This document shows, in pieces, positions 6,963 to 24,846 of a stretch of DNA of 28,986 bases. Made by a program: the position numbers and the translations under genes. Origin of the DNA: a virus; the IMG/VR virus record IMGVR_UViG_3300033998_000247, positions 1 through 28,986 of that record; one strand, given 5' to 3'. The notes beneath the pieces are model-generated. The model saw only the letters and a program-made list of their open reading frames with translations. It did not search any database and was not told where the DNA came from. The first letter of the stretch is position 1. Each line of letters starts with the position of its first letter.

Positions 6963-7931
6963 TTAAAGTATGGTGAATCCCGAAATATCAATATCATAAC
7001 AGTTATCAAGGTTATTTACTCTATTTATACTAATACTTTCAATAAAAAGTTGGGATTTTCTTCTATATTGATCTTCAATCAACACAGAATCAGCAAGAAG
7101 TGCTTTCTTAAGCTTTGTTATTTCATAAAGGCTACTCCCAATATAAAACCTACTAAGACCCAAATTAGCAGAAAATACACTTAAAATTTCTTTATCTGTT
7201 AAGAACATAGACTCTGGATCAGAAGTATAGTTGAATTCATTAACATCAATAATTGAAAGTGGATTTAAATTATAGAAATAAATAGTTAATATATCAAACC
7301 AGTGATTACCAAGCAGTAATACATCATTATCTAGAGGAACCATTGCAAAGTAGCCACCAGGAACAATATCCAGCTCCCCAATATATGTTTGTTGGTAATC
7401 AAGCCTGTATAACCTATACTGACTATCCAATAAATATTTCACCCCTTCAAGGGCAGTAAAACAGGCCAGATCAGCCCCATCAGAAAAGGTAATATCAAAC
7501 TGGTTTTTTAAAGATAGATTTGTCCTATCAAAAACATACACTCTTGCCAAACCACTTGAGGGCCTATCAACTACATAAATATCCGCGCCATCAACACTAA
7601 AACTACTCAAATTAACAACCGATAATCCAATATTATTCTCATGCTCAAAAACCAAATTTCTATTATATCTCGACAATACAGAACTGGAAGTATTTAAGAT
7701 AAACATATTATCCTTATCGCCACAGGCAATATCTCCAGAAATTGATAACAAATCGAGAAATTTGGGGAGTGGCTTCCAAATACGAGCTGTCAATTGCAAA
7801 TTCTTCTTGTAATAGCTCGGCTGGATTATTGTCCTACCCGATAGTGCTGTAACATCAGCTCCAACATATTCTAAAGTATCTTTTCTACTATTAGGCGCAA
7901 CGGTGAAGGTATAATCACCTATCCTATACAT
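6963..7931 (-). CDS. Dit-like distal tail protein with beta-rich insertion, copy 1
   Basis: The 322-residue protein begins MYRIGDYTFTVAPNSRKDT, reaches a strand LQLTARIWKP near residue 50, and ends with SQLFIESISINRV and YDIDISGFTIL. These outer parts fit a Dit belt domain directly after a tape measure gene. The middle (about residues 60-270) is a series of short strands with turns (DIYVVDRPSSG, RVYVFDRTN, KYLLDSQYRLYRLD, DVLLLGNHW), suggesting a beta-propeller or similar repeat fold inserted in the Dit core. A GGGGGAGTGG SD precedes the ATG. A pair of such genes is unusual, because one Dit is normal. Confidence is fair for a tail-tip role and lower for the exact fold. Confidence 0.55.
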   Translation of the reverse strand: MYRIGDYTFTVAPNSRKDTLEYVGADVTALSGRTIIQPSYYKKNLQLTARIWKPLPKFLDLLSISGDIACGDKDNMFILNTSSSVLSRYNRNLVFEHENNIGLSVVNLSSFSVDGADIYVVDRPSSGLARVYVFDRTNLSLKNQFDITFSDGADLACFTALEGVKYLLDSQYRLYRLDYQQTYIGELDIVPGGYFAMVPLDNDVLLLGNHWFDILTIYFYNLNPLSIIDVNEFNYTSDPESMFLTDKEILSVFSANLGLSRFYIGSSLYEITKLKKALLADSVLIEDQYRRKSQLFIESISINRVNNLDNCYDIDISGFTIL

Positions 7932-7949
7932 TAAGCCACTCCCCCTTTA

Positions 7950-10900
7950 TTAATATGAAATACCAGCATGACGCAATCTGGTTAATCTAGAAGCGCGTTC
8001 CTGTTGTCTCAAAGCCTTGGCAACGCCTTCACTTATCTTCTCCTCAATTAAGTTAAGAGTAGCCCGATCTATATTTGCTCCACCCTCAATGGTGAGGTTA
8101 ACCTCAAAGTAATTATAATTTCCAGAAGATGGTGTTGCTGTATTTTGTCCTGCAAAAATCTTATCTGTCCTTGCCAAGAAATCAATAAATCTACTTGTCA
8201 ACAACGGCGGCAGAACCATTTCATCCCGATGTAGTATAGCCAACTGCTCAAATTCAGATATGCCGCCTCTATGAGCAACACCTATCTTCTTCAGCTCTTT
8301 TTGTACCCTCTCAACAATATTGGGCTCTTTTCCTTCTGCGGCCCTACGGAGAAGGTCATTTACATAAGCAATAAGCCCACCAGGGAAAGTTCTTTCGATA
8401 TAAGCCGCATACTGATTTGTACTTATTGCCTTCGTTATCTTGCTAAACAAAGAGTCGGTGGTATTAGGAGTAGTATATTCAACACTAGTTGTTGCACTAC
8501 TCTTATTTGTACTGCCTCCCGTAGCACTACTGCTGGTTCCAGCAGAAGGCTGGCTTGTTGTTGGTAGTGAAGAAGTATAACTGCTACCAACAGTAGACCG
8601 ATATGAACTACTTTGTAATATTTGCGACAACGAATTAGGAATGCCCAAGATAGCATTCAGAACATCATGCTGGGTTTGCAACTGAGAAACATTCAAGTTA
8701 TATAAGCCACGTAAATTATCAACACTGACGCCTGTAAGCCTACTTATCTGCTCAAGATTTGCATTGCCCTTTATTGTTATTTCATGAGTTTTCTTATTCC
8801 ACTCAACGTTATAGCCCAATGCTTGAGCCACTTCCCTAATTGCCACATAACTCTTACCTTCCTCATCCACCCAGGCTGGTTTAAACCTTCGCCCGCCTAT
8901 TATAACTTCACTAGTTACCCTATCCCAGTCAACCGATACTCCCAGTATCCTACCCAACTCCCTGCTCCACATATAACTCTTACCATCCTGCAGGACATAC
9001 TGTCCATACCCAATAGTAGCAACAGTAACCTGTACCTGAAGCAAACCTAATATAGCCTCAAGTAAGCTAATCATCTTATCAAATTTTGTACCGTGTTCAC
9101 TTAACACAGTATTAACACCATCAAGACCAACAGAAATATTACTAATAATATTTTGCAGAGGACTTTCTGGTGGAGCAGGGGCTTCACCAGCGGACACCTC
9201 ACCAGTCCCAGGCATAGGAGGTAGTGGTGGGTAAACTTGGCCTTCGCCAGCCTCTCCTGGAAGCCTTAACCCTGGTATCTCCTCTGGGCCACGACCCTTC
9301 ATATACTCATAGACATACGGCTCAATCTTAAATCCAGAAGGAGCATTAAAAACTTGGTCTTTAAGAGTCTCAAGAATGCCACCAAGAAGATCTTTATAAG
9401 CTGGCAGATAAGAGGCCAGGATATCAATAATGCCCTGCAAGTTACTCCTAAATCCAGCCACATCAATCTGGCCGCCAGTAAAAACGCTCCTGGTTACAGA
9501 GGCAATCAAGTCATCTATCTGCTTACCAATACCAGTTGCCTCAAAAATAGCGTCTGAAATAGCCTCAGCCAACAGACCTCCAACGCTTTGCTTAATGTTA
9601 GCCAAGAAATCTTCCTGGTAAGACATAGAACCACTAAAGGCATCCGAAAGACCCCTTGCGAAAGCACTACGCAGACCGCTCGTCAAATTGTTATGGAATT
9701 CCAGGATAGAACTACGAGCCTCATAAGTCTTATTATCCAATTCCTCAAGACGATCCAAGTATTCATCAAGGCTAATTATCCCGAGTTTAAACGATTCGGC
9801 TAAAGCATCCTTGCGCTCATTAATCAAGCCTAACCATTGTTTCTCAAGAGACACTATCTCGTCCAGGAGAGCATAATACTCATCTTCTCCAGAATAACCT
9901 CCACTTTGAAGCAGGTTCACAGCTCTGCCAATTTGGGCTTGCAACATCAACCTGCGGTATTCCTCTACTTCACCAGCAGTCCTGACAAACTCCTCCAGCC
10001 CCTCAGCAGTTAATTCAAAATACTTCTTGGTTAAATCAACGCGCTGGGACAACAGCTCATTTTCCTTTGTATGTAACTCAACAATATCATTAAGAGCCAC
10101 AAAGTATTCAAGACTTAGTGGGGCGATTTCCTGGAATTTCTCATTCGCCTGCCTTAACTGTTCTCCCAGCACATAAAGACTCCTACCAAAATTCCTAACC
10201 TCTGCGTCGAAGAGATGGCGATAAGCATAAGGAGCTTCTGGAGCCATCGTCTCAAAAACTTGACGCAGATCGCTAACCTTCTCTTCTAAAGTATACAGAG
10301 CCTCATAGGTAGTCTTAATATTCTCTATCAGCTTGTTATAAACCGTACTGCCATACTCAGCCTGCCCAAGCCTGGAGAGATAGTTTAAAAGCTCATTTAA
10401 TTGAATTGTGCTATTATATCTTACCTCATCAATAAAGGCTTGGACTTGAGGGATGTATCTTAGCAAACCGCTGGCATACTGAGGAAATTCCAGCATTAAA
10501 TTTTGTAACATCTCAAGGATACTAGACCCAATGCCAGCCCAATTAGGCGGCATACCAGTAAGACCAGACATGGTCAACTGGACACCAATCTGCCTAAACA
10601 GATCACGCCATGCTTCTTCTTTGCGAAGGGCATAATATTCCTTATTTAATTGGGCTATTTGTTTAATTAGATCGCCCAACTGAGAGGCAGGAACTTCGTA
10701 AGCAAGTTTAATTAATTGATCGATTACATCTTTTAATTCTTCGCTTCTCTTACGAGCAAGGTTTTCATTAATTTGCGCCAACCGAATACTAACTCTTCTC
10801 CGTTCACTAAACTCCTCAAAAATCTGTTTCTTTGCCGCTTCATAATAAACATTAGCAAGTTTCCTGATGGCATTAATCAATTGGTTATTAAGTAAAGCAG

Positions 10901-13900
10901 GTATTTTTTGAACATCATTAACTATTTTATTAATACCCTGACGGTAAATATCGGTAATTTCGGGTACTTGCCCAGGGATTATATCTTCTAATTCCTTTAG
11001 TACATTAAGTGTTTGAGAAATTGCATCCGGCAGACCAAGATAAGAATTTCTCAGCCTCTCAATTTCTTGTGCTATTGTATTCAAAACATTTTGGGCTTGC
11101 TTTTTAGCTTCTTCTCCCGATGCTTTTACTTCCTGTTGAATATTACCAGCCCAATTCGTCAAAGCACTACTTGGTATAACGCCATACTTGGCAAAAAGAT
11201 TCATTCTTGCCTGTATTTCACTAGACGGTATACCAGCCCCCACATACCTTTTCAAGAAGCCGACAAGATCTCCACCAGCCGCCGCAAGGTCTTGCTGTAT
11301 CCTAATGGCCGTTACTTCAGCATTAATTCTCGGATCTTTCAGTAGAGATATTGCTTGCTCTCTAGTCTTAACTTCCGTAACACCATACTGAGCGGCAACC
11401 TGCCTTAAAATATCCCAATTCCGTTTTACATTCAAATTTATCTGCCCAAGACCTATACTGCTACCATGATCTCCAACCGCCTCTGGTCTGAAACCACTTT
11501 CCCTTTCTACAGTTGCCAGCAAAACACCAAGAGGGACATTATACTTCCTAGCCGCCTCCTCAAGTATTCCTCTAACATCACTAGTATCACCAAAAGGAAC
11601 AAGATGCTTATAATTCCCTTCAGTAGTCCCTCCAGATTCAGCCTGAACACGGAAGTCGCCATATCCAAGTCCACCACTGGTGGCCTTCTCTATAGCTCCA
11701 GTCAGTCTATCAGTAGCTTCTGTTAGTTTATCCTGGGATTGAATAAGTTTATCGCTCTGTTCTATAAGGGGGTCAGTAACAGCCTTTTTCATTTGTGCCC
11801 CAAGCTCTCCTAACCTAGCCTCTTCTATCGCCTGAGCGAGCTTCTCCTGGTCATCACCATACAAAGCAATGCTTTCCTCAAGACTAATATATGTATTCCA
11901 TAATTTTTCTATATTGCTGGATATGCGTGATTGTAAAAAGGACGTATAATCCCAACCCCTGCCGAAAACCTGAGTACCAACAGAGGCCAATCTCTGGTCT
12001 ACAGCAGGGCTTACAGAAATAACCCTCAATTCAGATATAGCCTGTTTTACCAGCTTAATCCTATTCTGTATACTCTCCCAAACACCAGCGTATTTTGTTC
12101 CGCTCAATACCAGTTGTAACTGGGCCTGTTGAATCTCCATCAAAGTAGTAACATACTCCAAAGACGAACGTTGAAGAGATGATTGTAACGCTTCCAACCT
12201 CTCAACATTGCTGACGAGAGTCTCGTATTCCTTAAACCGCTCCTCAGAATAGCCAGCTTTTCTTATATCTTCTAAACTCTTCTGGCCACTTAAAACTTGA
12301 TCATAAAGTGCCGCTTCATCTTTAAAGGCATTACGGTAATTTTCAAGGATCTTTCTATTTTCTTCTAACTGGGTATTGACATAGCCAATCCTCTCCTGGA
12401 TACTCTCATAAGATTCAATGGCTTTACTCTGGAGCTGGCTCATCAAACCAGTTACCGTGCTAACATATTCCATTGAAATGCCAAGATCCATGTAGCTGTT
12501 ACGAACAGCGTCAACAACTGTCTTAAGATTATTAAATTCCTCCGAAATTCTACTTACAGCTTTATTTATATTTGTTTCAATTCTAGTTATATCCTCTGGG
12601 GGAGCAGGGGAAACTCTAGCCGCAACCTTACCCTCTTCACCTTTCTCTCCCACAACCTGACCACCACCAAATCTCTGCCATTGCTCACGCCACTTTTCAA
12701 AATCCCTCTCCTGGGCAAGGCTCGTCATCCCATAAGAAGGATGATAGAACCTGATGGCCTTCAAACGCCTCTCCATTTCCTCAAATTCTCCCTGGGCCTC
12801 CTGTTTTTCTTGTAGTTCAACAAGTCGTGCTTCTTCCTCCCTAGTTAAAGTACCTTCAATTTGCTTATTAATCAGCTCCTCAAGAAGTAACTCTTCGCCT
12901 CTTGTAAGCCCCCGTTGAGCCCCTTCTTCTCTTAGAGTCCAATATCTTTCATAGGTTTCTCTTAATTCACTTTCGGTAAGTGCGCCAAATTCTTTCTTGG
13001 CTATTGGTTCATAAGCTTTATCAACCTGCCACTCTCTAAACTTTTTGCCTATCGCTTCAATGCCACTATAAACGGCACTAAATGCCACAGAAAGAAGGAG
13101 AATCTCAGGTATAGTAGCAAGTAAGCCCCTAATAGAAACTTTGAGGGCGTCTATCATTGTCCTAATACCCATCAAAGCTTGAGCTGTCCTATTAAAGACA
13201 GTCGGTAAAATCACCATAGTCTTGCCCAGTTTATCAAACGCTTCCTGTAAAGCTTGCACGGTTTTGGGAAATTCTATAAATCTACGATCTTTGGCTATTT
13301 GTTCTCTAAACTCCCTTATAGCATCTATATAGGGCAAGCCATAAGGCTGTTTTGCGGCAGGCACACCTGGAACAATAATTGTGGGTTCTTTTACTGTAGC
13401 CTTTATGCTTTCCAGTTTTTCGGTCGCTAAATCTATAGAAGTTTTGGGCTCGACTCTTAAAGCTTCGAGAATTTTAGTAGCCCGCTCTATATTAGTCAGT
13501 TCCCAATTATCACGAATTCTCTCAAGGCGAGCGGCTACTTCAGCAGTTATATCTGGACGATAACCAGCCTTGGGAGATACAACAACTTGTGGCAATTCTT
13601 CTTTTGCGCCCCTAGGTGTAGGCACATGGGGCACCACAATAGAAGGCTCTACTGTAGGCGAACGCCTGATAATTAGCGATTCTTCAGCAGATACTCCTTT
13701 GGGTAAGATAGGTATTCCCTCAATATACCTGTAATTTGAAGATAAAAGAGGTATCCTTCCAGAAGCTATATTTTCTAGCTTCTTGGTCGCTTGTTCTATA
13801 GCAGATAATTTCTTCAGTTCTTCGAGTTTTTCAGTAACCTCTTCTATAGTATTAGTAGTTTTACGAGCATCTAATAAAACGCCCTGCCCCAAATATACAA

Positions 13901-16469
13901 AACCAAATCTTAACTCTTCTCCGCGTCTACCCATAAGGGCTGGAGCAACATTAATAACTGGCCCACTAACCTCTCTTGCTAACCATCTTTCCCTGTCCTC
14001 ACGTAACTTGGCCGCCTTTTCTAATCTCTCGGTAGCACGCTCAACAGCATTCATGGGCAACCTCTCGTCCTGCCTGCCAGAAGCACGACGAGTAAGCGGA
14101 ACGCCCTCTCCCATATAAATATTTCTACCCGCAGGAACGTTCTGCCTACTAACTACAGCCTGCTGACTGGCTAATGCTTCCGTAGCAGATCTAATCGCCG
14201 CTTCTTCAGCCTTAAACTTCTCTATTAAAGCATCAACATTTCTACCAATAATATTAAACGCTTTCTGGCTCTCAATGGCCTGTAAGTTAATAGCTTCTGG
14301 AATAGAAGAAATCCCCTTCTCCAGATCTCTCAAAGACTTGGCAATAACACCCATGCCTTCATAGAACTTATAGGCCATCCTGGTAACAATAGCACTAACA
14401 AATCCCAGGAGGGCATTAAAGCCTCCAGGAATAGTGTTAATAGCATTAAGCAAAGCATTAATGGGCCTCAAAAGCATAGCGAAGAAATCAGCCAAGCCAC
14501 TGGTCTCGATTTTAGAAACCAGAACCGTATACTCAGCCCCCAACTGGCGCACTTGCCCCTGCAGGCTGGCCAAAACCTGCTTCTCCTGGTATGCGGCCTC
14601 ACCAGCACTCTTCAAAGAAGCATTATGGTAATCAAGTATCAAATTAAGAGATTGCACAAGTCCTCTAAACAAACTACCCTGCCTATAGCTGGCCCATGTA
14701 TTACTAATATATTGCTGTACTCCTTGTGGGAGCTCTTTCCACTTCTGGCTCAAGTCCACAATAACATCAAACATATTGCGGAGTTCGCCATTCACTTTAT
14801 AGACAGAAATTCCCACACTTTCCAGAGCCCGAATAGTCTCAGCATCACCATAATGTTCACTAATAAACTTAATGAAGTTACCTACCTCTGAGCCACCTAG
14901 ACCAGTAGCTGTACCAACAGTTTCAATCAAAATACTTAATTCTCTGGCTGACACCCCAACACCCTTAGCCGAGGCCGCAGTCCGTGAAAATGCCTCTCCC
15001 AGCTCCTTAAAATCAACAGTACCACGCCTGGCAAGAGCGGCCCACTGATCCATAAGCTGGTAAGCCTCAGCCATATTCATGTTATACTGCCGAATTGCCG
15101 AAATAATCAGCTCGGCAGACTCTTTATACTCAAGACCACTGATGTTAAAAGCACGCAAGGCCAGCTCAGTAGCCTTAATAGCCTCTTCCTCATCATTAAA
15201 AACTTTGGTAAATTGGTAGGCAATATTGACCGCCTCATCCATAGGGGCCATGTGTGCGGTACTAAGTTGTTCCACGTTCCTCACTATCTTCTCGAAATCA
15301 AGACCATCAGCAACAATTTGTAGATAAATAAACCTCTCGGACAACTCCCTAACATAACCAATGGCATCCCTAATGCCATTAATGAACATATAAACACCAG
15401 CAGTAGCAATGGCCCAAACTCCCATGCGATAAAACATTGTGCGGAATAAATCACTCAAACTTCTCTCAAAATTCAAAGTAACTCTACCAGCACGGTCAGC
15501 AAGAACAGCAAACTGCCCCAACCTATTGCCGTAATCATCATAAACCTGTATTGTATCGTACATACTGGTTCCTAACTGCTTTGCCGTTTGAGCCAAAGCT
15601 TTTATTCTATTCTGGATAGCAACTAACTGATCTGTCTTAAAATGCTTTTGAAAATCAAAAGGTTCAAAGGGAACCTCAGCATAATCAGCGATTTGCCGAG
15701 CTATGCTGGCACGCCTCATTCTGTAACTAACCTGCTGGGATCTAACATTAACAGGCGTCATGTAGCCATAAGTATCAAGATAAAATGGTTCCTGTGGCAT
15801 ACCATAAATAGCAAACCAGTCGGCAGGAGTAAGATCCTTCATTGTAAGAGGAAAAGATTGTTTAGTCCCTGCCGCTCCCCTAGCGGCTCTATTGACAGCT
15901 CTATTGACTACTTTATCAACGTCTTTTCTGAGCCTATCAAAACCACCTGTTGCATTATTAATCAGATTAGTTGTATCTCTCAGTACATTATTTAAAGTTC
16001 TAGCAGAATCTGTAACTGCATTCAAATTCTTAACGCCGCGCTGTCCAAGATCATCCAATAACTTACTTTGCCGTTCAATAGAACGGGACACCTTAGCCAG
16101 CATTTCATTATAACTTCTCCAGGTATTCTTATCGCCAAAAGAGACAGGAATAGCCAGGGGGCTTCTCCCTACTCTCCTGGTGACGTTTTCGATATGCCTT
16201 TCAAGCTCAGAAATGGTTGCTTGGGGAGAAAAACCGACATGGGCCTGCACATTAAGTTGTTCACCAATGGAAGCCACTTGGGACTTAACAGCCTGCAATT
16301 CTCCATCAGCCACTTTTACCCGAACAGTAGCCTGGAGATTGAGAGTCTGTAGCTTCCGCTGGAAATTTTCAAGGGCAAGAATAATCCCCTGGAAACTACG
16401 CTCTAGATTTTCTACATCTGCAATTGCCTGTACTACATAATTAGTTCTATATTCAGCCACAGGAACCAC
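7950..16469 (-). CDS. Tail tape measure protein with lytic transglycosylase and stalk domains
   Basis: This is the largest gene, 2839 residues, sited between the small pre-tape genes and the Dit genes. Residues about 355-610 match the TP901-type tape measure core (VGNFIKFISE, GSLFRGLVQSLN). Residues about 755-1070 hold repeated short motifs of the form IE.ATEKLE alternating with PTIIVPGVP-like segments. A hydrophobic stretch lies near 1110-1140. Residues about 1630-1745 form an SLT lytic transglycosylase domain with the catalytic-type ERESGF and IGLGQIN motifs, for local peptidoglycan cleavage during DNA entry. Long coiled-coil regions follow. Residues about 2488-2568 are two copper-amine-oxidase-N-like stalk repeats (REVAQALGYNVEWN). 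A Ser/Thr-rich linker follows at about 2620-2675, and the C-terminus has the HRDEMVLPPLL motif common in tape measures. By the usual 1.5 angstroms per residue, the tail would be very long, roughly 0.4 micrometres or less. Start is GTG 16469 or GTG 16460. Confidence 0.95.
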   Translation of the reverse strand: MVPVAEYRTNYVVQAIADVENLERSFQGIILALENFQRKLQTLNLQATVRVKVADGELQAVKSQVASIGEQLNVQAHVGFSPQATISELERHIENVTRRVGRSPLAIPVSFGDKNTWRSYNEMLAKVSRSIERQSKLLDDLGQRGVKNLNAVTDSARTLNNVLRDTTNLINNATGGFDRLRKDVDKVVNRAVNRAARGAAGTKQSFPLTMKDLTPADWFAIYGMPQEPFYLDTYGYMTPVNVRSQQVSYRMRRASIARQIADYAEVPFEPFDFQKHFKTDQLVAIQNRIKALAQTAKQLGTSMYDTIQVYDDYGNRLGQFAVLADRAGRVTLNFERSLSDLFRTMFYRMGVWAIATAGVYMFINGIRDAIGYVRELSERFIYLQIVADGLDFEKIVRNVEQLSTAHMAPMDEAVNIAYQFTKVFNDEEEAIKATELALRAFNISGLEYKESAELIISAIRQYNMNMAEAYQLMDQWAALARRGTVDFKELGEAFSRTAASAKGVGVSARELSILIETVGTATGLGGSEVGNFIKFISEHYGDAETIRALESVGISVYKVNGELRNMFDVIVDLSQKWKELPQGVQQYISNTWASYRQGSLFRGLVQSLNLILDYHNASLKSAGEAAYQEKQVLASLQGQVRQLGAEYTVLVSKIETSGLADFFAMLLRPINALLNAINTIPGGFNALLGFVSAIVTRMAYKFYEGMGVIAKSLRDLEKGISSIPEAINLQAIESQKAFNIIGRNVDALIEKFKAEEAAIRSATEALASQQAVVSRQNVPAGRNIYMGEGVPLTRRASGRQDERLPMNAVERATERLEKAAKLREDRERWLAREVSGPVINVAPALMGRRGEELRFGFVYLGQGVLLDARKTTNTIEEVTEKLEELKKLSAIEQATKKLENIASGRIPLLSSNYRYIEGIPILPKGVSAEESLIIRRSPTVEPSIVVPHVPTPRGAKEELPQVVVSPKAGYRPDITAEVAARLERIRDNWELTNIERATKILEALRVEPKTSIDLATEKLESIKATVKEPTIIVPGVPAAKQPYGLPYIDAIREFREQIAKDRRFIEFPKTVQALQEAFDKLGKTMVILPTVFNRTAQALMGIRTMIDALKVSIRGLLATIPEILLLSVAFSAVYSGIEAIGKKFREWQVDKAYEPIAKKEFGALTESELRETYERYWTLREEGAQRGLTRGEELLLEELINKQIEGTLTREEEARLVELQEKQEAQGEFEEMERRLKAIRFYHPSYGMTSLAQERDFEKWREQWQRFGGGQVVGEKGEEGKVAARVSPAPPEDITRIETNINKAVSRISEEFNNLKTVVDAVRNSYMDLGISMEYVSTVTGLMSQLQSKAIESYESIQERIGYVNTQLEENRKILENYRNAFKDEAALYDQVLSGQKSLEDIRKAGYSEERFKEYETLVSNVERLEALQSSLQRSSLEYVTTLMEIQQAQLQLVLSGTKYAGVWESIQNRIKLVKQAISELRVISVSPAVDQRLASVGTQVFGRGWDYTSFLQSRISSNIEKLWNTYISLEESIALYGDDQEKLAQAIEEARLGELGAQMKKAVTDPLIEQSDKLIQSQDKLTEATDRLTGAIEKATSGGLGYGDFRVQAESGGTTEGNYKHLVPFGDTSDVRGILEEAARKYNVPLGVLLATVERESGFRPEAVGDHGSSIGLGQINLNVKRNWDILRQVAAQYGVTEVKTREQAISLLKDPRINAEVTAIRIQQDLAAAGGDLVGFLKRYVGAGIPSSEIQARMNLFAKYGVIPSSALTNWAGNIQQEVKASGEEAKKQAQNVLNTIAQEIERLRNSYLGLPDAISQTLNVLKELEDIIPGQVPEITDIYRQGINKIVNDVQKIPALLNNQLINAIRKLANVYYEAAKKQIFEEFSERRRVSIRLAQINENLARKRSEELKDVIDQLIKLAYEVPASQLGDLIKQIAQLNKEYYALRKEEAWRDLFRQIGVQLTMSGLTGMPPNWAGIGSSILEMLQNLMLEFPQYASGLLRYIPQVQAFIDEVRYNSTIQLNELLNYLSRLGQAEYGSTVYNKLIENIKTTYEALYTLEEKVSDLRQVFETMAPEAPYAYRHLFDAEVRNFGRSLYVLGEQLRQANEKFQEIAPLSLEYFVALNDIVELHTKENELLSQRVDLTKKYFELTAEGLEEFVRTAGEVEEYRRLMLQAQIGRAVNLLQSGGYSGEDEYYALLDEIVSLEKQWLGLINERKDALAESFKLGIISLDEYLDRLEELDNKTYEARSSILEFHNNLTSGLRSAFARGLSDAFSGSMSYQEDFLANIKQSVGGLLAEAISDAIFEATGIGKQIDDLIASVTRSVFTGGQIDVAGFRSNLQGIIDILASYLPAYKDLLGGILETLKDQVFNAPSGFKIEPYVYEYMKGRGPEEIPGLRLPGEAGEGQVYPPLPPMPGTGEVSAGEAPAPPESPLQNIISNISVGLDGVNTVLSEHGTKFDKMISLLEAILGLLQVQVTVATIGYGQYVLQDGKSYMWSRELGRILGVSVDWDRVTSEVIIGGRRFKPAWVDEEGKSYVAIREVAQALGYNVEWNKKTHEITIKGNANLEQISRLTGVSVDNLRGLYNLNVSQLQTQHDVLNAILGIPNSLSQILQSSSYRSTVGSSYTSSLPTTSQPSAGTSSSATGGSTNKSSATTSVEYTTPNTTDSLFSKITKAISTNQYAAYIERTFPGGLIAYVNDLLRRAAEGKEPNIVERVQKELKKIGVAHRGGISEFEQLAILHRDEMVLPPLLTSRFIDFLARTDKIFAGQNTATPSSGNYNYFEVNLTIEGGANIDRATLNLIEEKISEGVAKALRQQERASRLTRLRHAGISY

Positions 16470-23179: not shown

Positions 23180-24052
23180 TTACCTTGAAATTACCCCCTT
23201 AACAACAGCACGGTCATCCAACACACCGAAACCAATCTCTTCGTAAGCTACAATGGAAACACGCAGTCTGTTGCTGGCAGTAGGATCTTCAAAGGTCATG
23301 AGCGATTGTCTTTCGGGCATTACACCGAAGCGGCTGGTATCAAACAGATACACCTCATTATCAGCCAGCGAATTCAGAGGAATAATTGTTACACCCCAAA
23401 TATTTCCCAAGCCGCCTTGTTGCCAAACTTCACGCCTAGTAGTATCATCAAGTTGAGTGTTGTCCCACTCACGAATTTCAGCGGCAGACAACACAGAACA
23501 GAACATCAGATCAGCCTTAAAGCCCTCATAGGACTCAAGACGTGCAATCATTTCGTTAATCAGTTTTTTGGACAGATAAGTACCTTCAGTAGTACCAAGT
23601 TGAATAACATTTTCTGGTTTTACGGCGGCCTTGATCAATGCCCAACCAGCCTGCTCCTCTTGTACCAGAATCGCATCGGCCAGCTTCTGACGGGCACGCT
23701 GGGAAATATTAAACCTACCATCACGGGCATAGCTCATACGGAAAGTAACATCAGAAGTAATCTCGAAAGTATTCACCAGCAACTCATCGCCGTCACGATA
23801 GTTAATAGGCACCCCACCCAAACGGGGCATTACCCAAGCAGTAACATTCTCGAAATCAACGGGATAGCTGGCCAAAGCGCCAGGATCAAGGGGGTCGGGA
23901 GCAAAAATCTTACGCACAGACCCTTTATGTTCTAAGTCTTTTTTAACAGGAATGGACAGCGAAGCGGCCCACGCCTTACGAGCTACATCATCATAGAAAA
24001 TACGGCGAAACATTTCTCTCCTTTTGGCTTCATCAATAGCAGGTTTGGTCAT
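23180..24052 (-). CDS. Major capsid protein, HK97 fold
   Basis: The 290-residue product (start ATG 24052) has the expected order of an HK97-type shell protein: helical N-arm (MFRRIFYDDVARKAW), an E-loop-like segment with FAPDPLDPGALASYPV and ITSDVTFRMSYARDGRFN, a spine helix (ARQKLADAILVQEEQAGWALI), and a C-terminal P-domain strand (FGVMPERQSL, then VSIVAYEEIGFGVLDD). No long N-terminal delta domain is present, in agreement with a separate scaffold gene. ATG 24052 is preceded not by an adjacent SD but by a 41-base hairpin. A second possible start, ATG 24013, follows AAAAGGAGAGAA and would remove 13 residues. The gene is placed right after a mobile RNA element. Confidence 0.85.
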   Translation of the reverse strand: MTKPAIDEAKRREMFRRIFYDDVARKAWAASLSIPVKKDLEHKGSVRKIFAPDPLDPGALASYPVDFENVTAWVMPRLGGVPINYRDGDELLVNTFEITSDVTFRMSYARDGRFNISQRARQKLADAILVQEEQAGWALIKAAVKPENVIQLGTTEGTYLSKKLINEMIARLESYEGFKADLMFCSVLSAAEIREWDNTQLDDTTRREVWQQGGLGNIWGVTIIPLNSLADNEVYLFDTSRFGVMPERQSLMTFEDPTASNRLRVSIVAYEEIGFGVLDDRAVVKGVISR

Positions 24053-24112
24053 AAACTTTGCGGCTGGATACCCCCGATTTTAATCAGGGGAGGAAGCCGC
24101 TTACCCTCCTTT
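24050..24112 (-). promoter_or_regulatory. Capsid gene ribosome binding site bridged by a hairpin
   Basis: AAAGGAGGG (24112-24104) is 51 bases from ATG 24052. A 41-base hairpin lies between them: outer stem GCGGCT/AGCCGC (24100-24095 with 24065-24060), inner stem CCCCTGAT/ATCGGGGG with a TAAA loop. With the hairpin folded, only TAA and AAAGTTT separate SD and ATG, about ten bases, so the SD could act across the hairpin as in T4 gene 38. GGAGG can also pair with the CCTCC in the hairpin, which would hide it. Confidence 0.5.
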
Positions 24113-24372
24113 CTATGCAACATATTTGTACCTCACATAGTAAGCCTCCTCAACGGAGTATCTTCAGCCCTTCGGCCATGTCCAGCAGGCTTAGCACAGC
24201 CAAGCCATGCGTGGGATTCAGCGGTTCTCCCGTAGAGCCTGGAGCTAGGGCGGCACCCCAGGATACTTGGTAGCCCACTGGACGTAGCGGGTTGGATACC
24301 GCTTGGCCTAGTTCAACCGTTACCCTTGCTACCGCCATCGCAAGCCTCCGAATTTATTCGGGGTGGTTGACC
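24053..24372 (-). mobile_element. IscB-less IS200/IS605-type mini-element
   Basis: The 341-base gap between decoration and capsid genes has no credible protein. Read on the minus strand, it has an omega-RNA-like left part (24372 to about 24145), a short spacer (24144-24113), and a right-end hairpin of IS605 type with TTCCTCCCC and GGGGGTATCC arms (24100-24060). The right end abuts ATGA, the 3' flank I recall for HEARO insertions and compatible with known IscB target-adjacent motifs. Joining the flanks restores AAAGGAGG, 9-10 bases, then ATGACC, a normal start for the capsid gene. No iscB or transposase reading frame remains, so it is probably a non-autonomous derivative. The exact left boundary is uncertain by a few bases. 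Confidence 0.6.
24145..24372 (-). ncRNA. HEARO / IscB omega-RNA-like structured RNA
   Basis: Outer stem TCAACC (24370-24365) pairs with GGTTGA. Inside it are hairpins CCGAA-TAAA-TTCGG and CTTGC...GCAAG. A second long-range stem AGCGGT/ACCGCT encloses CCCGC/GTGGG. GTGGG can alternatively pair with the later CCCAC as a pseudoknot. A GGCTT...AAGCC hairpin and CTCC...GGAG hairpin follow. The sequence and order (ACCACCC, hairpin, GGAGGCTTG, then GGTTGAACTAGG) match my memory of omega-RNA scaffolds from IscB loci. In that system the guide is the sequence just 5' of the scaffold, here the tail end of the decoration gene region and the old SD (about 24393-24373). Recognition is from memory and hand pairing, not a model search. 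Confidence 0.55.
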
Positions 24373-24381
24373 TATTACTCT

Positions 24382-24389
24382 CCTCCTTT
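24382..24389 (-). promoter_or_regulatory. Stranded Shine-Dalgarno, probably the original capsid RBS
   Basis: AAAGGAGG stands just after the decoration gene's stop with no start codon downstream in range. Its context (AAAGGAGGAG then GTAATAG) closely mirrors the AAAGGAGGAG before the decoration gene's own ATG. Removing the element puts it 9-10 bases before the capsid ATG. Confidence 0.6.
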
Positions 24390-24393
24390 GCAG

Positions 24394-24846
24394 TTACACC
24401 AGTAATTTAATCTTCACAGGCGAACCAGCGGCTCCACTCTCAAGAGCCACAGCAACGGGCGGTTGGTCAACAATCTCAACGTTGGATAACTTACCAGCTA
24501 AAGTAGCATCGGTGCTAGAATCAGCAGGCCACAACGTATCACCAGCATTTACATTGGTAGCAATTTGGTCGGTAATATAAATGTCATTGTAAAAAACGGC
24601 CACAACTTCACCATAGCGAACCTTAGTGGTCGCAACAGAAGGCAAAATATGTGTATTCACGTTCGGAGCAATCACATCTTGGCCCAACAAACCAAGAATT
24701 TTAGCAGTAGGTGTGGCCTGAGTTGCATAATCAATCTTCGTAGGATCACTAGCATCAAAAGTTACTAACCTGCCAGCAACCATATCCTTATTGGGGGCTT
24801 TAAATTCACCATAGACAGGAGAATTGCGATTGTACTCTTTAAGCAT
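24394..24846 (-). CDS. Capsid decoration-like protein
   Basis: The 150-residue product starts at ATG 24846 with AAAGGAGG ten bases upstream. It has a short N-arm (MLKEYNRNSPVYGEF), then a compact beta fold with AGRLVTFDASDPTKI, KILGLLGQDVIAP and a long loop (GDTLWPADSSTDATL). The pattern of low-complexity Ala/Thr/Val strands, with GRLV and ILGLL segments, is typical of head decoration proteins that bind the outside of HK97-type capsids. It precedes the capsid gene, the usual order in lambda-like modules (decoration then capsid). No family name can be given with certainty. Confidence 0.6.
   Translation of the reverse strand: MLKEYNRNSPVYGEFKAPNKDMVAGRLVTFDASDPTKIDYATQATPTAKILGLLGQDVIAPNVNTHILPSVATTKVRYGEVVAVFYNDIYITDQIATNVNAGDTLWPADSSTDATLAGKLSNVEIVDQPPVAVALESGAAGSPVKIKLLV

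What the first reader, a model, noticed from the sequence alone, without database searches (positions are those of the whole stretch)
24053..24393. Omega-RNA (HEARO-like) element with no iscB gene, next to the capsid gene
Seen: a 341-base gap in a gene-packed module holds a multi-stem RNA on the gene strand (TCAACC/GGTTGA, CCGAA/TTCGG, CTTGC/GCAAG, AGCGGT/ACCGCT, GTGGG/CCCAC) followed by a TTCCTCCCC / GGGGTATCC right-end hairpin. Known: IscB loci of the IS200/IS605 group have a guide, an omega-RNA, iscB, and a right end, and HEARO RNAs are the omega-RNAs of IscB. Inference: this is a minimal derivative that kept RNA and ends but lost the nuclease and must use helper proteins in trans. The guide slot is the phage's own sequence around 24393-24373, next to ATGA. 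A phage carrying a stand-alone omega-RNA aimed at a capsid-gene translation start could bias inheritance of the locus or act against related phages lacking the insertion.
Basis: partly seen in the sequence, partly recalled or inferred. Interest (0 to 1): 0.85.

Follow-up and report, generated by a model that had tools for sequence, protein, structure and literature searches.

The report
Nuclease-less omega-RNA element before capsid gene
A 319-base jumping-DNA remnant that kept its guide RNA but lost its RNA-guided nuclease (IsrB) sits exactly between the ribosome-binding site and the start codon of a phage's major capsid gene, so the RNA's guide spells out that gene's own ribosome-binding site.

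Summary
Rfam HEARO (RF02033) matches window 24371-24160 (minus) over its full length at 89.2 bits, E 4.5e-17, and the 28,986-bp viral record has no IscB/IsrB or Y1 transposase gene. A phage contig (L048) carries the same element with an intact isrB of 337 aa: the omega-RNA part is 90.6% and the right end 91% identical. The window copy is therefore an internal deletion derivative: 990 bp between two GAGGT repeats are gone, leaving seven isrB codons, and the RNA and both ends remain. Its parent is IsrB-type (no HNH domain), not IscB. A third phage element (L269) has the same ends around tnpB. All three end 7-8 nt past the right-end hairpin, immediately before RTGA. Here that is ATGA, the capsid gene's start codon. 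Removing the element joins GCAAAGGAGGAGAGTAATAG to ATGACC, a normal Shine-Dalgarno/start with a 22-bp gap; relatives have 11-86 bp and the window has 341. About 20 other nuclease-less HEARO loci occur in viral contigs. Stand-alone HEAROs and ends-only IS605 derivatives are known; this position and clean derivation in a phage are new details. Guide activity is untested; inheritance bias is speculation.

The parts
24053..24371 (-). whole element (319 bp): omega-RNA, isrB remnant, right-end block, 7-nt tail
   Evidence: similarity to L048 starts exactly at 24371 and runs through the right-end hairpin; L048, L269 and K. racemifer copies fix the right boundary just before RTGR
24160..24371 (-). HEARO / omega-RNA scaffold
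   Evidence: RF02033 full length, 89.2 bits, E 4.5e-17
24372..24391 (-). guide slot GCAAAGGAGGAGAGTAATAG = the capsid gene's original Shine-Dalgarno region
   Evidence: unique flank directly 5' of omega-RNA base 1, as in K. racemifer copies; anti-SD duplex -11.6 kcal/mol
24382..24389 (-). Shine-Dalgarno AAAGGAGG, now cut off from its start codon
   Evidence: sequence; relatives have SD plus ATG after an 11-86 bp gap
24113..24136 (-). isrB remnant GTG AGG TAC AAA TAT GTT GCA TAG (first codons fused to RYKYVA-stop)
   Evidence: alignment with L048 isrB, whose last codons read RYKYVA-stop; 990-bp (330-codon) deletion between GAGGT repeats
24104..24112 (-). AAAGGAGGG purine tract (SD-like) directly 5' of the right-end hairpin, complementary to CCTCC of the hairpin
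   Evidence: shared with L048 and L269 despite different cargo
24060..24100 (-). right-end hairpin
   Evidence: same structure in L048, L269 and about 17 other elements
24053..24059 (-). 7-nt tail AAAGTTT ending at the insertion point
   Evidence: tails of 7-10 nt before RTGR in L048, L269, K. racemifer and others
24049..24052 (-). target-adjacent motif ATGA, which is also the capsid gene's start codon
   Evidence: capsid M1 aligns with M1 of the phage G and Tunturi_5 capsid proteins; DtIsrB uses an NTGA motif (PMC9581776)
23180..24052 (-). major capsid gene (290 aa)
   Evidence: PHROG 2522 E 1.7e-32; phage G gp27 28-31% identical
24394..24846 (-). 150-aa ORF in the place of the decoration protein gene of phage G
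   Evidence: synteny only; no sequence match

Best explanation
It is a non-autonomous IS200/IS605-type (OMEGA) element: an isrB transposon that lost about 990 bp of isrB by deletion between short repeats but kept its complete omega-RNA and both transposon ends. It was inserted, presumably by a Y1 transposase acting in trans on single-stranded DNA, immediately 5' of an ATGA that is the start codon of the major capsid gene. This cut the gene's Shine-Dalgarno sequence from its start codon and made that sequence the guide of the RNA. Shown by sequence: identity, parentage, boundaries, target motif, placement, and the clean SD-ATG site left after removal. Inferred: mobilisation in trans; co-transcription of the RNA with the late capsid operon; capsid translation rescued either from the element's own AAAGGAGG tract across the folded right-end hairpin or from an in-frame ATG at 24013 that has its own Shine-Dalgarno. 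Possible but unproven: loading of the RNA by an IsrB from the host or a co-infecting phage, which would then nick insertion-free copies of the capsid start (GCAAAGGAGGAGAGTAATAG-ATGA), while the carrier's own copy is spared because GTCA replaces the motif.
For: HEARO full-length match. Two-block 91% match to an isrB-carrying phage element, with exactly the isrB interior missing and GAGGT at both deletion points. Parent protein matches DtIsrB and has no HNH domain. The same ends surround tnpB in L269. Right boundary followed by RTGA in three unrelated sites of this element family and by RTGG in K. racemifer copies. Relatives have 11-86 bp between the preceding gene and the capsid gene, several with a clear SD, against 341 bp here. 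Capsid M1 aligns with relatives' M1, so the ATGA is the native start. About 20 other nuclease-less HEARO loci in viral contigs, several also between an SD and a start codon.
Against: No exact empty site was found and no close relatives of this phage are held. No transposase or nuclease gene is in the contig, which is a fragment. The copy scores about 20 bits lower with the HEARO model than L048 (89.2 against 108.9), and preservation of base pairs between the two is only marginally better than chance (P 0.057), so the RNA may be decaying. No expression data.
Confidence: 0.87

Rival explanations
1. Inert, decaying passenger: a deletion derivative that landed at a tolerated gene junction and does nothing; the RNA is only read through as a 5' leader of capsid mRNA. 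(This shares the identity of the best explanation and differs on function.)
For: No nuclease in the contig; lower HEARO score than L048; weak evidence of pair preservation; phage gene junctions are the likely tolerated sites, which alone explains insertion at start codons.
Against: Full-length RNA and an intact right-end hairpin retained; four paired positions that changed between the two copies all still pair in the joint fold; nuclease-less HEAROs recur in unrelated phages.
Confidence: 0.5
2. Active trans-acting guide: the RNA is loaded by an IsrB encoded elsewhere and biases inheritance or excludes insertion-free relatives.
For: Geometry is exactly that of a working guide plus NTGA-type motif; TnpB gives such a drive in multicopy plasmids (PMC11870625); an isrB of the same family is carried by another phage.
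Against: No expression or activity data; IsrB nicks rather than cuts; co-occurrence of IsrB in the same cell is unknown.
Confidence: 0.18
3. Domesticated regulatory leader: the RNA or the right-end block (AAAGGAGGG, CCTCC, hairpin) now controls capsid translation in cis.
For: The native SD is separated from the start; an SD-like tract sits directly 5' of the hairpin, with CCTCC able to pair with it.
Against: The same tract exists in elements not in front of genes (L048) and in coding sequence in K. racemifer, so it looks like an element feature rather than an adaptation to capsid; an alternative ATG with an SD exists at 24013.
Confidence: 0.17
4. An ordinary structured 5' leader or other riboregulator, unrelated to OMEGA elements.
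For: Position upstream of a structural gene.
Against: HEARO E 4.5e-17; 91% identity to an isrB element on both sides of the deletion.
Confidence: 0.01

Closest known systems
IsrB OMEGA loci (Desulfovirgula thermocuniculi IsrB, PDB 8dmb; PMC9581776)
   Same: omega-RNA family, guide 5' of the scaffold, NTGA-type motif on the far side; L048 protein matches DtIsrB at E 2.9e-45
   Different: the window copy has no isrB gene; it is an RNA-only derivative in a phage
HEARO RNA family RF02033 (IscB/HEARO loci, PMC9755519)
   Same: full-length covariance-model match above the gathering score
   Different: no associated HNH/IscB ORF; the nearest intact relative is IsrB-type
Palindrome-associated transposable elements (PATEs) of IS200/IS605 (PMC7290912)
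   Same: both ends, no transposase, internal deletion leaving a stub of the nuclease gene, presumed mobilisation in trans
   Different: the PATE-like copy described there keeps a tnpB stub; this one keeps a complete HEARO omega-RNA and an isrB stub
Multi-copy HEARO elements of Ktedonobacter racemifer
   Same: same end architecture; many copies (64 matches); left and right boundaries behave alike
   Different: chromosomal, RTGG motif; most of the 30 copies examined extend over about 1.3 kb, i.e. with an internal gene
TnpB gene drive of insertion sequences in plasmids (PMC11870625)
   Same: proposed logic: the guide records the insertion site and targets the empty allele in a multicopy replicon
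   Different: there the nuclease is in cis and activity was measured; here neither holds

Membership tests
HEARO / omega-RNA (RF02033) | covariance-model match over the gathering score | tested here: met
   89.2 bits against 83, model 1-211
IscB/IsrB OMEGA locus (autonomous) | RuvC-type RNA-guided protein encoded 3' of the RNA | tested here: not met
   no PF14239 match in the record; only a 7-codon isrB remnant
IsrB element, deletion derivative | both flanking blocks homologous to an isrB element, isrB interior missing | tested here: met
   234 bp at 90.6% and 78 bp at 91% to L048, 990 bp missing
IS200/IS605 family | Y1 transposase gene in the element or contig | tested here: not met
   PF01797 absent from G000; present elsewhere in the L048 contig beside a TnpB-like ORF
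IS200/IS605 family | subterminal hairpins at both ends, shared with tnpB elements of the family | tested here: met
   left-end and right-end hairpins; same ends around tnpB in L269
IS200/IS605 family | insertion next to a fixed short target motif without target duplication | tested here: met
   RTGA directly at the right end in window, L048 and L269; no duplication seen in the window flanks
PATE / non-autonomous IS605 derivative | moves with transposase supplied in trans | not testable with these tools
   needs a transposition assay
Functional guide RNA | expression and loading into an IsrB/IscB nuclease | not testable with these tools
   no RNA data; structural constraint only marginal

The most novel reading that the evidence does not exclude
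A phage carries a working, nuclease-less guide RNA whose guide is the ribosome-binding site of its own capsid gene. Made in bulk with late transcripts and loaded by an IsrB from the host or a co-infecting phage, it attacks insertion-free sister genomes at the capsid start, so the element spreads through phage populations as a trans-acting gene drive or exclusion device.
Probability: 0.13. Interest if true: 0.88.

Novelty: new variant of a known kind. Interest (0 to 1): 0.52.

Why it matters
It gives a clean step-by-step picture (intact isrB element, same ends with tnpB, RNA-only derivative) of how OMEGA systems shed their nuclease in phages. It also shows that a motif of the form ATGA/GTGA lets such elements drop between a ribosome-binding site and its start codon, turning an essential phage gene's translation signal into the RNA's guide. 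That makes a testable case of whether nuclease-less omega-RNAs act in trans during phage co-infection, and how a gene survives such an insertion.

Tried and rejected
Close relatives of the capsid and portal proteins in IMG/VR: none. Exact empty-site string in IMG/VR: none. Element DNA in the phage, plasmid and E. coli collections: none. Tight element pattern in genome contigs: none; the L048 IsrB protein there found only K. racemifer at 50%. Capsid protein in the HEARO-bearing records: distant relatives only. An automatic right-end finder failed for many elements, so right ends were curated by eye. Idea that these elements specially target SD-start sites: left flanks have strong SD in 13 of 52 phage elements against about 11.5% of background RTGR sites, but 7 of 30 in K. 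racemifer too; survival at gene junctions explains this, so no targeting claim is made. Idea that the SD-like tract before the right-end hairpin evolved to rescue translation: 10 of 20 curated ends against 6% of random positions, but it is coding sequence in K. racemifer and complementary to the hairpin's CCTCC, so it is left as a hypothesis.

Full report
Observation. The window is a 28,986-bp viral record with phage structural genes on the minus strand: portal/Mu F-like protein, major capsid, tail proteins and a 2,839-aa tape measure. Between a 150-aa ORF and the capsid gene is a 341-bp gap. Rfam HEARO matches 24371-24160 on the minus strand over the whole model, 89.2 bits, E 4.5e-17. It is the only Rfam hit in the window, and the search rings in none of 14 control genomes. 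No IscB/IsrB (RRXRR, PF14239) or Y1 transposase is present in the record.

Parentage. A scan of IMG/VR with a HEARO core pattern found a 96-kb phage contig (L048, terminase next door) holding the same element with a nuclease gene. Omega-RNA part: 234 bp, 90.6% identical; right end: 78 bp, 91% identical; between them lies an isrB of 337 aa. That protein matches DtIsrB (8dmb, E 2.9e-45) and only RRXRR in Pfam, with no HNH domain, so the parent is IsrB-type. In the window, isrB is reduced to GTG AGG TAC AAA TAT GTT GCA TAG; L048 reads ATG AGG TTT ... TGG AGG TAC AAA TAC GTT GCA TAG. GAGGT stands at both deletion points, 990 bp (330 codons) apart (read). A plain deletion between short repeats explains the copy.

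Ends. A scan with the right-end sequence found one more phage contig, L269. It has the same left end (32 bp, 94%) and right end (55 bp, 91%), but between them lies a reverse-oriented tnpB (372 aa; PF07282, PF01385) and no HEARO. The ends are thus IS200/IS605-type ends that have carried isrB, tnpB, or RNA alone. In all three, the right-end hairpin is followed by 7-8 nt and then RTGA (ATGA, GTGA, GTGA). Thirty copies in Ktedonobacter racemifer calibrate this: similarity generally starts at omega-RNA base 1, left flanks are unique, and most copies end shortly after the hairpin at RTGG. The window element is therefore 24371-24053; its guide slot is 24391-24372 and its motif ATGA 24052-24049. DtIsrB's published motif is NTGA (PMC9581776).

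Site. ATGA is the capsid gene's start. The capsid protein aligns from its N-terminus with Bacillus phage G gp27 and Tunturi_5. In relatives the gap before the capsid gene is 25 bp (phage G), 36 (Tunturi_5), 11 (LR745208.1), 73 and 86 bp (G053, G080), several with a clear SD. Taking the element out of the window leaves a 22-bp gap, CTGCAAAGGAGGAGAGTAATAG-ATGACC, an ordinary SD and start. So the element sits between SD and ATG, and the RNA's guide is the capsid gene's SD. The exact joined string is not in IMG/VR, and no close relative of the phage is held, so the empty site is inferred, not observed.

How common. Two pattern scans and HEARO/RRXRR searches of the records give about 70 HEARO loci in viral contigs; about 20 have no RRXRR gene next to them. 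Several keep a stub of the nuclease gene like the window (G006 151 kb, G086, G089). At least five others end directly before an ATGA/ATGG that starts an ORF (G025, G048, G064, G085, G088), four of them with an SD-like sequence in the left flank (weak in G088). Carriers with a nuclease do this too (G005, G067). Over 52 phage elements a strong SD in the left flank occurs in 13, against about 11.5% of background RTGR sites; K. racemifer shows 7 of 30. Survival at gene junctions is enough to explain this. The sampling was by RNA pattern, so retention of the RNA in deletion derivatives is partly ascertainment.

Does the RNA still matter? Eighteen substitutions separate the window and L048 RNAs. In the joint fold the four changed pairs all still pair, one with both sides changed. 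With the L048 fold alone, two pairs break against 4.7 expected (P 0.057). The HEARO score is 20 bits lower than L048's. This is compatible with weak constraint or recent decay. No expression data exist. I put active guide function at about 0.18 and the full drive/exclusion story at about 0.13. The precedent for the drive logic is TnpB in multicopy plasmids (PMC11870625).

Capsid translation. The insertion removed the SD from the start. Two routes remain: an in-frame ATG at 24013 preceded by AAAAGGAGAGAA, or the element's own AAAGGAGGG (24112-24104) brought near the ATG by the folded right-end hairpin. Neither is tested. The tract is shared by L048 and L269 and can pair with CCTCC of the hairpin; in K. 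racemifer it is coding.

Known or new. Stand-alone HEAROs and ends-only IS605 derivatives (PATEs, PMC7290912) are known kinds; that stand-alone HEAROs are known rests on my own knowledge. The papers that first described HEARO and ISC elements, and those on IscB/TnpB transposition, were not held here, so novelty is judged against a limited library. New in detail are the phage-borne isrB-deleted copy with its intact parent and tnpB sibling, and its position between SD and start of the major capsid gene.

Noticed in passing
L269 (IMGVR_UViG_3300006674_000133) 7536-8765: Phage element with the same two ends as the window element but carrying reverse-oriented tnpB instead of omega-RNA plus isrB: RNA-guided cargo exchanged between the same ends.
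   Followed up: partly
right ends of window 24104-24112, L048, L269, G005, G054, G085, G088: A GGAGG-like tract lies directly 5' of the right-end hairpin and is complementary to the hairpin's CCTCC; it could be an outward ribosome-binding site or a competing structure.
   Followed up: partly
G025 (L074) and G048 (L075) right ends: Two related elements in different phages end in TGAGGAAA[G/T]ATT directly before an ATGA start codon, so the element seems to bring its own SD to the gene.
   Followed up: no
G006 (IMGVR_UViG_3300034684_000299, 185 kb): Six HEARO RNAs, four RRXRR ORFs and a Y1 transposase in one viral contig; two of the HEAROs have no nuclease next to them.
   Followed up: partly
G081 82514-84231 (L262, L263): A capsid-gene homologue is split by about 1 kb containing a 283-aa ORF, perhaps an intron or other insertion.
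   Followed up: no
LR745208.1 (485-kb uncultured phage): Carries an IsrB 61% identical to the L048 IsrB and also a capsid protein related to the window's.
   Followed up: partly
window 7950-16469: 2,839-aa tape-measure protein with a copper amine oxidase N-terminal-like domain and an SLT (transglycosylase) domain.
   Followed up: no
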